Notes under the pieces: generated by a model | Told to the model about the DNA's origin: nothing | The model's database searches: none | What the model saw: only the letters and a program-made list of their open reading frames with translations | Source: a bacterium | GTDB lineage: Bacteria > Patescibacteriota > Patescibacteriia > Patescibacteriales > Patescibacteriaceae | Length of the DNA stretch: 64,000 nt | Direction of reading: 5' to 3' | NCBI GenBank assembly: GCA_029570385.1 | Contig: JAKPXD010000015.1 | Location: forward strand, 1-64,000 | Shown here: piece after piece, positions 50,979-52,020 of the stretch | Layout of the letters: every line of letters starts with the position of its first letter | Position numbering within the stretch: position 1 is the stretch's first letter | Program-made: the position numbers and the translations under genes

Positions 50979-51007
50979 TTGACAAATTAGCAGAACTATG
51001 ATATAAT
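50979..51007 (+). promoter_or_regulatory. Perfect sigma70 promoter of the 31-residue peptide gene
   Basis: TTGACA (50979-50984), exactly 17 bases, TATAAT (51002-51007). All twelve bases match consensus. The start site is expected near 51014, giving a leader of about 49 bases that is very A-rich before the SD. Confidence 0.85.
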
Positions 51008-51017
51008 TTAATATCAT
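50998..51017 (+). promoter_or_regulatory. Palindrome over the -10: likely operator
   Basis: ATGATAT (50998-51004) and ATATCAT (51011-51017) are perfect inverted halves around a 6-base centre, covering the -10 and the expected start site. A shorter, similar dyad (TGAT...ATCA, 50966-50978) lies just upstream of the -35. The arrangement fits a dimeric repressor. Confidence 0.5.
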
Positions 51018-51051
51018 CAAATTGTATTTTAAAAATAAATAAAAAAAAGAA

Positions 51052-51059
51052 GGAGGTGG
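51052..51059 (+). promoter_or_regulatory. Perfect Shine-Dalgarno site
   Basis: AAGGAGGTGG spans 51050-51059, with its GGAGG six bases from the ATG at 51063. This is the only canonical SD I found ahead of any gene in the window. Confidence 0.85.
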
Positions 51060-51062
51060 AAC

Positions 51063-51158
51063 ATGTTACTTCGAATGTTCCTCGCCATCCTGCCATTTAT
51101 ATTGGCTTGGGCCCTTGTTTTTCTGTTTGTCAAGATGTTCGACGACCACGACATCTAA
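51063..51158 (+). CDS. 31-residue membrane peptide with strong expression signals
   Basis: The peptide begins MLLRMFLAILPF and ends KMFDDHDI. Residues 5-24 are one hydrophobic helix flanked by an Arg at the N-terminal side and by a Lys then Asp/His-rich end, so it should insert in the membrane. Size and charge layout recall type I toxins such as Fst (hydrophobic core, acidic tail) or small membrane regulators; this is resemblance only. It has a perfect promoter, a palindrome over the -10, a perfect SD and its own terminator, and its 3' UTR has a 7-base element complementary to the SD. No antitoxin or antisense RNA was found. Confidence 0.7.
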   Translation: MLLRMFLAILPFILAWALVFLFVKMFDDHDI

Positions 51159-51164
51159 ACTAAA

Positions 51165-51171
51165 CCACCTC
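51165..51171 (+). promoter_or_regulatory. SD-complementary element in the 3' UTR
   Basis: CCACCTC is perfectly complementary to GAGGTGG (51053-51059) of the SD. Pairing would close the mRNA into a loop of about 105 bases and hide the ribosome site. A G/C-rich patch (CCCC...GGGG) follows directly. Confidence 0.4.
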
Positions 51172-51212
51172 AACCCCAAGGGGGGAGAGGGAATAACATT
51201 TAAAAAGAGTTT

Positions 51213-51239
51213 ACCAGTTCTCTAAAAACTGGTTTTTTC
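51213..51239 (+). terminator. Rho-independent terminator of the peptide gene
   Basis: ACCAGTT and AACTGGT form a perfect 7-bp stem (loop CTCTAAA) followed by six Ts. The transcript would be about 225 bases. Confidence 0.85.
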
Positions 51240-51244
51240 TTTGG

Positions 51245-51379
51245 CTAAATATTATTTTTGGTGCCGGGATTGTTGATGATAAATTGTTTCTTGCGCGGAT
51301 CAAAATCAATAATTACCAGCATATATCGTGCCCGTTTACTTGCCATTAAGATTGAAGTTTCTTCACAGTCACTGGCCAT
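51245..51379 (-). pseudogene. Possible gene remnant, 44 codons
   Basis: The minus strand carries MASDCEETSILMASKR... continuing with LVIIDFDPRKKQFIINNPGT and ending at a TAG. The FIINNPGT end resembles the terminal strands of C39-like peptidases (usually ...INDPGT...). The frame is open upstream for 11 more codons but has no full domain. It is probably a decayed fragment; it could also be a real short gene. Its strand is opposite to the neighbouring 31-codon gene. Confidence 0.3.
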
Positions 51380-51405: not shown

Positions 51406-52020
51406 ATGGTTATTATTTATCATTACTGGTTCATGCTAGACCAAATACTAACTATTCTTATTGCCTACCAATATTGGGCTTTACTACTTATTGTTTTTCT
51501 TGCCGCCTTATTTAATATTGCGCCGGCTAGCTCAGCCTTGATTGCCGCTGGTGCGCTAGTTGCTTTAGGTTATCTGGATTATTCTTTAGTTTTTTTGTTT
51601 GGTCTGGTTGGTTCTGTTGTTGGTGATTTGTTATCCTATAGCTTGGCTTTTATTTATGGCCAAGATGTATTAATTCGTCTTGGTTTTAAGCGCCTGCTCA
51701 AGTCAAATAAATTTCAACAAATTAACAGGGTTTTTACAGCTCATTCCACGCGCACCATTTTTGTCAGCCGTTTTTTCTTAACCAGCTTCGGTCCGCTTAT
51801 CAACTTAATTGCCGGCTTAGCGCGGTCCGATTTTAAAAAATTTATTATTTGCAGTTTGTTCGGCCAGATAATTTATGTTACTTTATTGACTGGCATTGGT
51901 TATGTCGGCGCTCGCCATTGGCAGTATATTTCTAATTTTTATGGCTATCTAGCCTTAATCTTGGTGATCATAGCGGTTTATTGGCTGTATCGTCGTTTTT
52001 TCCGTCGAGCCGTAACTTGA
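51406..52020 (+). CDS. DedA/SNARE-associated (VTT) family membrane protein
   Basis: 204 residues, about five to six hydrophobic segments. SALIAAGALVALGYLDYSLVF gives the first VTT element. FVSRFFLTSFGPLINLIAGLAR is the core landmark, followed by LTGIGYVGARHW. DedA proteins help flip undecaprenyl or other phospholipids and keep membrane homeostasis. The start is uncertain: ATG 51406 (MVIIYHYWF) or an internal ATG at 51433 (MLDQILTIL). It ends with a basic tail (YRRFFRRAVT). Confidence 0.8.
   Translation: MVIIYHYWFMLDQILTILIAYQYWALLLIVFLAALFNIAPASSALIAAGALVALGYLDYSLVFLFGLVGSVVGDLLSYSLAFIYGQDVLIRLGFKRLLKSNKFQQINRVFTAHSTRTIFVSRFFLTSFGPLINLIAGLARSDFKKFIICSLFGQIIYVTLLTGIGYVGARHWQYISNFYGYLALILVIIAVYWLYRRFFRRAVT

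What the first reader, a model, noticed from the sequence alone, without database searches (positions are those of the whole stretch)
50979..51239. Self-contained locus for a 31-residue membrane peptide with near-perfect signals
Seen: TTGACA-N17-TATAAT, AAGGAGGTGG with a 6-base spacing to ATG, a 31-codon frame with one hydrophobic helix and an acidic tail, and a strong terminator, all within 261 bases after a tRNA gene. No other gene start in this window has a canonical SD that I could find. Known: type I toxins (Fst/Hok/Ldr types) and small membrane regulators are about this size and hydrophobic; in flavobacteria, where SD use is rare, rpsU keeps a strong SD for autoregulation. Inference: an abundant or tightly regulated small protein, possibly a toxin or stress-response peptide, that uses the rare SD as a control point.
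Basis: partly seen in the sequence, partly recalled or inferred. Interest (0 to 1): 0.78.

Follow-up and report, generated by a model that had tools for sequence, protein, structure and literature searches.

The report
Self-contained gene for tiny membrane peptide
A 31-residue membrane peptide has its own near-perfect promoter, ribosome-binding site and terminator in a tiny-genome bacterium that almost never uses such ribosome-binding sites, and it proves to be one of a small, fast-changing set of genes built the same way in this genus.

Summary
The signals are real. TTGACA-17-TGA-TATAAT is one of eight perfect promoters in this 654 kb genome. AAGGAGGTGG pairs with the intact 16S tail (-17.3 kcal/mol), the 31-codon frame has one hydrophobic helix, and a terminator follows. 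The peptide has no detectable relative in 111 same-order or 381 same-class genomes, nor in phage, plasmid or family libraries: an orphan, not disproved.

The gene is not a lone oddity. Across three congeneric genomes about 40 genes share the design. They are rare (about 2%) in genomes whose other genes avoid SD-like sequence. They are enriched for TTGACA, own terminators and monocistronic layout, use distinct codons and evolve fast; 17 of 19 reciprocal orthologs are also SD-led. The sister species has two further SD-led single-helix mini-proteins.

Unexpectedly, rpsU (bS21) in this genus and across its order carries CTAGAAAGG-N-AGGTG, complementary to the 16S tail with one extra base. It ranks first of 559 genes, paralleling Bacteroidia.

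Best reading: a real, strongly transcribed, single-pass membrane micropeptide of an SD-led accessory gene class. Toxin function is possible but unsupported. Control of SD-led genes by bS21 is plausible and untested.

The parts
50979..51007 (+). sigma-70-type promoter TTGACA-17-TATAAT with extended -10 (TGA before TATAAT)
   Evidence: one of 8 perfect sites in the genome
51014..51239 (+). predicted monocistronic transcript, about 226 nt (inferred start about 7 nt after the -10)
   Evidence: inference from promoter and terminator positions; fold z-score -2.96
51014..51049 (+). A-rich leader (AAATAAATAAAAAAAAG) shared in style with other SD-led genes; TTGTATTTTAAAAAT in it resembles a degenerate boxA-like TTGTTCTTTAAAAAT
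   Evidence: resemblance read by eye, boxA statistic for the class
51050..51059 (+). Shine-Dalgarno AAGGAGGTGG, GGAGG core 6 nt from ATG; pairing with the 16S tail -17.3 kcal/mol
51063..51158 (+). 31-codon frame MLLRMFLAILPFILAWALVFLFVKMFDDHDI, one hydrophobic helix (17-residue mean hydropathy 2.81), acidic C-terminal tail
51058..51081 (+). GGAACAT...ATGTTCC 7-bp inverted repeat over the start codon (possible weak translational brake)
   Evidence: not unusual for the class
51165..51171 (+). CCACCTC in the 3' untranslated region, complementary to GAGGTGG of the SD (candidate only; not in the predicted minimum-energy fold)
   Evidence: sequence; fold; such sequences are not a class feature (4/37)
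51213..51239 (+). intrinsic terminator, 7-bp stem plus T-run

Best explanation
The locus is a genuine, independently transcribed gene for a single-pass membrane micropeptide. It belongs to a genus-wide class of accessory, fast-evolving genes that carry everything needed for expression: a TTGACA-type promoter, an A-rich leader with a strong Shine-Dalgarno, and their own terminator. The rest of the genome runs on SD-less initiation, mostly in operons. How it works: housekeeping sigma-70 polymerase makes a short abundant mRNA; ribosomes are recruited by SD/anti-SD pairing, without help from an upstream gene; and the peptide inserts in the membrane, probably N-terminus in with the acidic tail outside. 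Shown by sequence: the signals, their rarity, class membership and codon fit. Inferred: transcription, translation, membrane insertion and orientation. The most likely role is a small membrane accessory protein that tunes a membrane complex or the envelope, not a toxin. Because the lineage's rpsU carries an extended SD as in Bacteroidia, translation of this class may respond to how much anti-SD is free of bS21 (inference).
For: Signals confirmed and rare. In three genomes 37 SD-led genes of at least 70 aa were compared with SD-less genes having more than 100 nt upstream gap. TTGACA: 24/37 vs 51/417, p 4e-12. Terminator: 21/37 vs 73/417, p 5e-7. Close same-strand downstream gene: 4/37 vs 215/417, p 1e-6. 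GC3 offset is +0.10, p at most 1e-9 against every control set tried, including isolated, TTGACA-bearing and exported-like SD-less genes. Bulk genes have fewer SD-like sites than background. 17 of 19 reciprocal-best-hit orthologs are also SD-led, so the SD is inherited. Peptide codons fit the SD-led model rather than the bulk (+9.2 bits; only 0.2% of bulk 30-codon chunks score as high). The sister species has two SD-led single-helix mini-proteins (49 and 60 aa) with promoter boxes and terminators.
Against: There is no homolog to test for purifying selection. Bulk codon statistics do not favour the frame (-6 bits), and non-coding shadow frames reach the SD-led codon score in 8.9% of cases. N-terminal membrane segments are only weakly enriched in the class (15/37 vs 112/417, p 0.09). 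General promoter score (at least 9/12) is not enriched over other genes with a long upstream gap; only the exact TTGACA box is. Two congeners with an altered anti-SD keep unaltered SDs.
Confidence: 0.6

Rival explanations
1. Type I toxin-like (Fst/Ldr-like) membrane peptide held silent by an antisense RNA or by mRNA structure; the strong promoter and SD drive it when the brake fails.
For: Size, single helix and charged tail resemble FstpAD1 (PMC8147318) and the 31-residue SprG1 form (PMC8309996). The start codon lies in a 7-bp hairpin and the SD is mostly paired in the prediction (unpaired 0.16). CCACCTC in the 3' UTR can pair the SD. The peptide is an orphan.
Against: No Pfam, NCBIfam or PHROG family. 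The best opposing promoter is 9/12, at chance density (21 found vs 14.3 expected). SD burial is within the range of other SD-led genes. 3' anti-SD-like sequence is not a class feature. The recognisable class-mates are not toxins.
Confidence: 0.17
2. Horizontally acquired (moron-like) gene whose perfect, host-independent signals are what let it be expressed after transfer; function is secondary.
For: Class codon usage is shifted (AGA+AGG 43% vs 20% of Arg, GC3 +0.10). Class members are accessory and fast-evolving (G000 to G001: 41% vs 68% identity; 8/13 vs 430/546 with orthologs). The SD-led pyrophosphatase's best named matches (57-59% identity) are mostly Bacteroidota. Secreted members carry Por_Secre_tail/FlgD_ig ends. 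One SD-led gene is 100% identical between two species whose genes average 84%.
Against: The SD is inherited with orthologs; GC3 offsets persist although many orthologs are only about 40-54% identical; no repeat of tRNA-Gln or other integration mark at the locus; no phage or plasmid match. The 100% case sits on a short contig and may be a binning error.
Confidence: 0.13
3. Chance frame: the transcript is a small non-coding RNA or leader RNA and the 31 codons are not a product.
For: No homolog; bulk codon model negative; RNA fold more stable than shuffles (z -2.96).
Against: Near-maximal SD at correct spacing in a genome that avoids SDs, a hydrophobic helix seen in 1.2% of such frames, and no Rfam family.
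Confidence: 0.08
4. Leader peptide controlling read-through into the downstream DedA/VTT gene at 51406.
For: The best promoter match between 51240 and 51406 is only 8/12, so the peptide promoter might serve that gene.
Against: No alternative anti-terminator is evident; many SD-less genes lack clear promoters; the sister's VTT gene has no SD-led leader frame in front of it.
Confidence: 0.02

Closest known systems
Fst/Ldr-type type I toxins (FstpAD1; also SprG1)
   Same: About 30 aa, one helix, charged C-terminal tail, own promoter and terminator, structured translation start
   Different: No sequence match, no demonstrable antisense RNA, no toxicity data; the recognisable genes of the same SD-led class are not toxins
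Bacteroidia bS21 (rpsU) autoregulation by an extended SD (Flavobacterium johnsoniae, PMC9976891)
   Same: Genome avoids SDs while its 16S keeps CCUCC; rpsU has the strongest 16S pairing (-20.2 here; below -13 there)
   Different: Different lineage; the rpsU SD has one extra base and extends into the UCUAG of the 16S 3' region; a further set of about 15 SD-led genes exists per genome, including this peptide; occlusion of the anti-SD by bS21 not shown here
Phage morons (single genes with own promoter and terminator)
   Same: Self-contained expression unit, foreign-like codon usage, accessory distribution
   Different: Not in a prophage; several class members are inherited across species with the SD
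Small single-pass membrane subunits and regulators such as KdpF or CydX
   Same: Size and topology (comparison from general knowledge)
   Different: No partner operon; monocistronic

Membership tests
Fst/Ldr-type type I toxin | sequence match to a described toxin family | tested here: not met
   No Pfam, NCBIfam or PHROG family
Fst/Ldr-type type I toxin | single hydrophobic helix of about 30 aa with charged tail | tested here: met
Fst/Ldr-type type I toxin | antisense RNA antitoxin overlapping the mRNA | tested here: inconclusive
   Best opposing promoter TTGATC-16-TATCAT 9/12 at 51303-51276, chance density
Fst/Ldr-type type I toxin | SD sequestered in mRNA structure | tested here: inconclusive
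   SD unpaired 0.16, AUG 0.32, within the range of other SD-led genes
Fst/Ldr-type type I toxin | growth arrest on expression | not testable with these tools
   needs an expression assay
SD-led self-contained gene class of this genus (defined here) | strong SD (AGGAGG/AAGGAG) at correct spacing from ATG | tested here: met
SD-led self-contained gene class of this genus (defined here) | TTGACA box upstream, own terminator, no close same-strand neighbour downstream | tested here: met
   for the locus; for the class
SD-led self-contained gene class of this genus (defined here) | shifted codon usage | tested here: met
   +9.2 bits for the SD-led over the bulk model; weak as proof of coding because shadow frames reach it in 8.9%
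SD-led self-contained gene class of this genus (defined here) | SD kept in orthologs | tested here: inconclusive
   17/19 for other class members; the peptide has no ortholog
Bacteroidia-type bS21 control of SD use | most genes lack SD although the 16S keeps CCUCC | tested here: met
   G000; sisters G001 and G002 have UAUCUCC instead of CACCUCC
Bacteroidia-type bS21 control of SD use | rpsU has exceptionally strong SD | tested here: met
   rank 1/559, -20.2 kcal/mol; 13 genomes -12 to -25
Bacteroidia-type bS21 control of SD use | bS21/bS18/bS6 pocket that binds the 16S tail | not tested
   bS21 found; pocket residues not compared
Bacteroidia-type bS21 control of SD use | bS21 depletion raises translation of SD mRNAs | not testable with these tools
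   needs an experiment

The most novel reading that the evidence does not exclude
In this reduced-genome lineage translation has two regimes. Complete ribosomes hide the anti-SD and read SD-less housekeeping mRNAs. A bS21-poor subpopulation reads rpsU and a small regulon of self-contained SD-led genes, including this membrane peptide. That would be specialised ribosomes controlling an accessory regulon outside the Bacteroidota.
Probability: 0.2. Interest if true: 0.85.

Novelty: new variant of a known kind. Interest (0 to 1): 0.52.

Why it matters
Gene-finders that rely on length or homology would miss such mini-genes; here a strong SD at a gene start marks a coherent set of genes, many of them clearly real. 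If the class is translated under separate control, a minimal bacterium uses the SD not as a default but as a switch. The rpsU extended SD conserved across an order, with a partly compensatory change in one species whose 16S tail has mutated, makes this testable and would show that bS21 autoregulation through the SD arose or persists outside the Bacteroidota. The papers found by my searches describe it there only.

Tried and rejected
(1) Homologs of the peptide by six-frame search in genus, order and class: only chance-level stretches (E 0.002-0.3), none with an SD-led frame on inspection. (3) RNA families: none at gathering score except the tRNA; weak hits are chance. (4) SD sequestration as a toxin-like hallmark: present in prediction but not special. 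(5) Anti-SD-like sequence in the 3' UTR as a class feature: 4/37, rejected. (6) tRNA-associated integration: no repeat of the tRNA of 14 bases or more elsewhere on the contig. In sister G002 tRNA-Gln follows the same patatin gene but is followed by another gene.

Full report
OBSERVATION. All elements described are present at the stated places. The promoter is TTGACA 50979, 17 bp, TATAAT ending 51007, with TG one base before the -10. The SD AAGGAGGTGG is at 51050-51059, the frame 51063-51158 encodes MLLRMFLAILPFILAWALVFLFVKMFDDHDI, and the terminator stem is at 51213-51233. In 653.5 kb of this genome only eight TTGACA-N16-18-TATAAT sites exist. From the printed downstream sequence most of the others precede tRNAs or what read as rpsP, groES and infA (my reading), i.e. 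strong growth promoters. Among 1900 ATG frames of 25-40 aa in the genome, 1.2% contain as hydrophobic a segment.

SD USE. GGAGG precedes 11 of 540 genes of at least 100 aa. By pairing energy, ordinary genes have weaker SD-like matches in front of the start than 60 nt further upstream, with a separate strong tail. The 16S 3' end of this genome is GGATCACCTCCTTTCTAG. In both other genomes of the genus it is GGATTATCTCCTTTCTAG, while the 13 other relatives read have the canonical form apart from one change after CTTTCTA. Loss of a conserved CCUCC has been described for several Candidatus phyla (PMC10783764), so a variant tail as such is not new.

THE CLASS. Listing all ATG frames behind a strong SD gave a set of genes of one design: TTGACA box, A-rich leader such as AATAAAAAAAGGAGG, strong SD, frame, terminator. 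Statistics over G000, G001 and G002 (37 genes of at least 70 aa against 417 SD-less genes with more than 100 nt upstream gap): TTGACA within 140 nt 24 vs 51 (p 4e-12); terminator within 120 nt 21 vs 73 (p 5e-7); close same-strand downstream gene 4 vs 215 (p 1e-6); boxA-like leader 9 vs 13 (p 1e-5). The boxA and terminator patterns are my own consensus scans. GC3 is 0.10 above the genome mean along the whole gene and differs from every control set tried; AGA plus AGG make 43% of arginine codons against 20%. A proxy set of ribosomal-protein-like genes does not share this, so it is not an obvious expression-type bias. Contents: pyrophosphatase, NUDIX proteins, an inositol-monophosphatase-like protein, a DUF218 protein, lipoproteins, secreted proteins with FlgD_ig/Por_Secre_tail ends, and orphans. 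Reciprocal best hits G000 to G001: 8/13 at 41% mean identity, against 430/546 at 68% for other genes; where an ortholog exists it is SD-led in 17 of 19 cases over the three pairs. The SD is therefore an inherited property.

THE PEPTIDE IN THE CLASS. Its SD is among the strongest well-placed ones of the genome (-17.3 kcal/mol with the 18-nt tail; rpsU -20.2; NUDIX -17.6). Its codon choice fits the class rather than the bulk, though this alone does not prove coding because non-coding frames reach it in 8.9%. In G001 two other SD-led single-helix mini-proteins (49 and 60 aa, C1:191539 and 191957), each with a TTGAC(A/T) box and a terminator-like hairpin, stand close to two SD-led genes. So tiny membrane proteins recur in the class without sequence similarity. 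No homolog of the window peptide was found anywhere searched.

MECHANISM. Shown: signals, rarity, class statistics, inheritance of the SD in other members. Inferred: a short abundant mRNA; SD-driven initiation independent of upstream translation; insertion as a single-pass helix, N-in by the positive-inside rule. A toxin remains possible from size and shape (compare FstpAD1 in PMC8147318, and SprG1 in PMC8309996) but the tests available here are negative or neutral.

rpsU. bS21 is present in the genus. Its gene starts with CTAGAAAGGTAGGTGTAGTATG, complementary to CACCUCCUUUCUAG of the 16S 3' region with one extra base. It is the best of 559 starts in G000 (-20.2), third of 408 in G002 and 13th of 604 in G001. 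In G002, whose 16S tail is UAUCUCC, the leader AGAAAGGTAGAATAAT pairs better with its own tail (-16.4) than with the canonical one (-13.7), which looks compensatory; G001 shows no such gain (-12.2 with both). The strict pattern CTAGAAAGGNAGGTG-N1-10-ATG occurs in 15 of 111 genomes of the order, the reversed control in none of those listed. Of its 16 sites 11 precede a bS21 gene, one is cut by a contig end, and four precede other or unclear frames. Looser versions occur in most other relatives read. In F. johnsoniae an extended SD on rpsU gives autoregulation by ribosomes lacking bS21, and free energies below -13 are typical of rpsU across Bacteroidota (PMC9976891). My searches of held papers found no report of this outside Bacteroidota; most subscription papers were not searchable. 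Whether the mature 16S extends through UCUAG is not known here.

VERDICT. A true observation; an orphan membrane micropeptide gene belonging to an SD-led, self-contained, accessory gene class. The class and the rpsU leader are more interesting than the peptide itself. Two-regime translation is a hypothesis (about 0.2). Weak points: one genus, metagenome-type genomes with some contamination, simple gene calling with first-ATG starts, a class defined by me, and no expression data.

Noticed in passing
G000 C7:4275-4296 (L192, L221); relatives L181-L196, L214-L229: rpsU (bS21) leader CTAGAAAGG-N-AGGTG is complementary to the 16S 3' region with one inserted base, conserved across the order; G002 shows a compensatory-looking change to its mutated 16S tail.
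   Followed up: partly
L052, L053 (16S of G002, G001) versus L054: The two congeners have GGATTATCTCCTTTCT instead of GGATCACCTCCTTTCT at the 16S 3' end, yet keep SD-led genes with AGGAGGTGATCC-type SDs.
   Followed up: partly
G000 C3:44754 (-), 43-aa frame: Another SD-led mini-frame (MEESMSKKLFSAMRVY...) with its SD and start codon almost fully buried in predicted structure (unpaired 0.02 and 0.00).
   Followed up: no
window 51245-51379 (-): 44-aa reverse-strand frame MASDCEETSILMASKRARYMLVIIDFDPRKKQFIINNPGTKNNI between peptide and VTT gene; reads like a remnant of a C39-like peptidase end, but no Pfam match.
   Followed up: partly
G001 C1:37949, 84650, 262552; C5:50488; G000 C31:477: SD-led secreted proteins ending in FlgD_ig/Por_Secre_tail-like domains, several per genome.
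   Followed up: partly
G001 C1:194022 and G002 C44:2703: An SD-led NUDIX-like protein is 100% identical between species whose genes average 84%: recent transfer or binning error.
   Followed up: no
leaders of G001 C4:112675, C5:50488, C5:54329, G000 C28:3709: boxA-like TGTTCTTTAAAAA/TTCTTTAACAA in SD-led leaders (9/37 vs 13/417), as in rRNA antitermination leaders.
   Followed up: partly
L223 (G051), L227 and L228 (G102, G103): The rpsU-type extended SD also precedes a Gly-rich small protein and a small protein with CxxC pairs.
   Followed up: no
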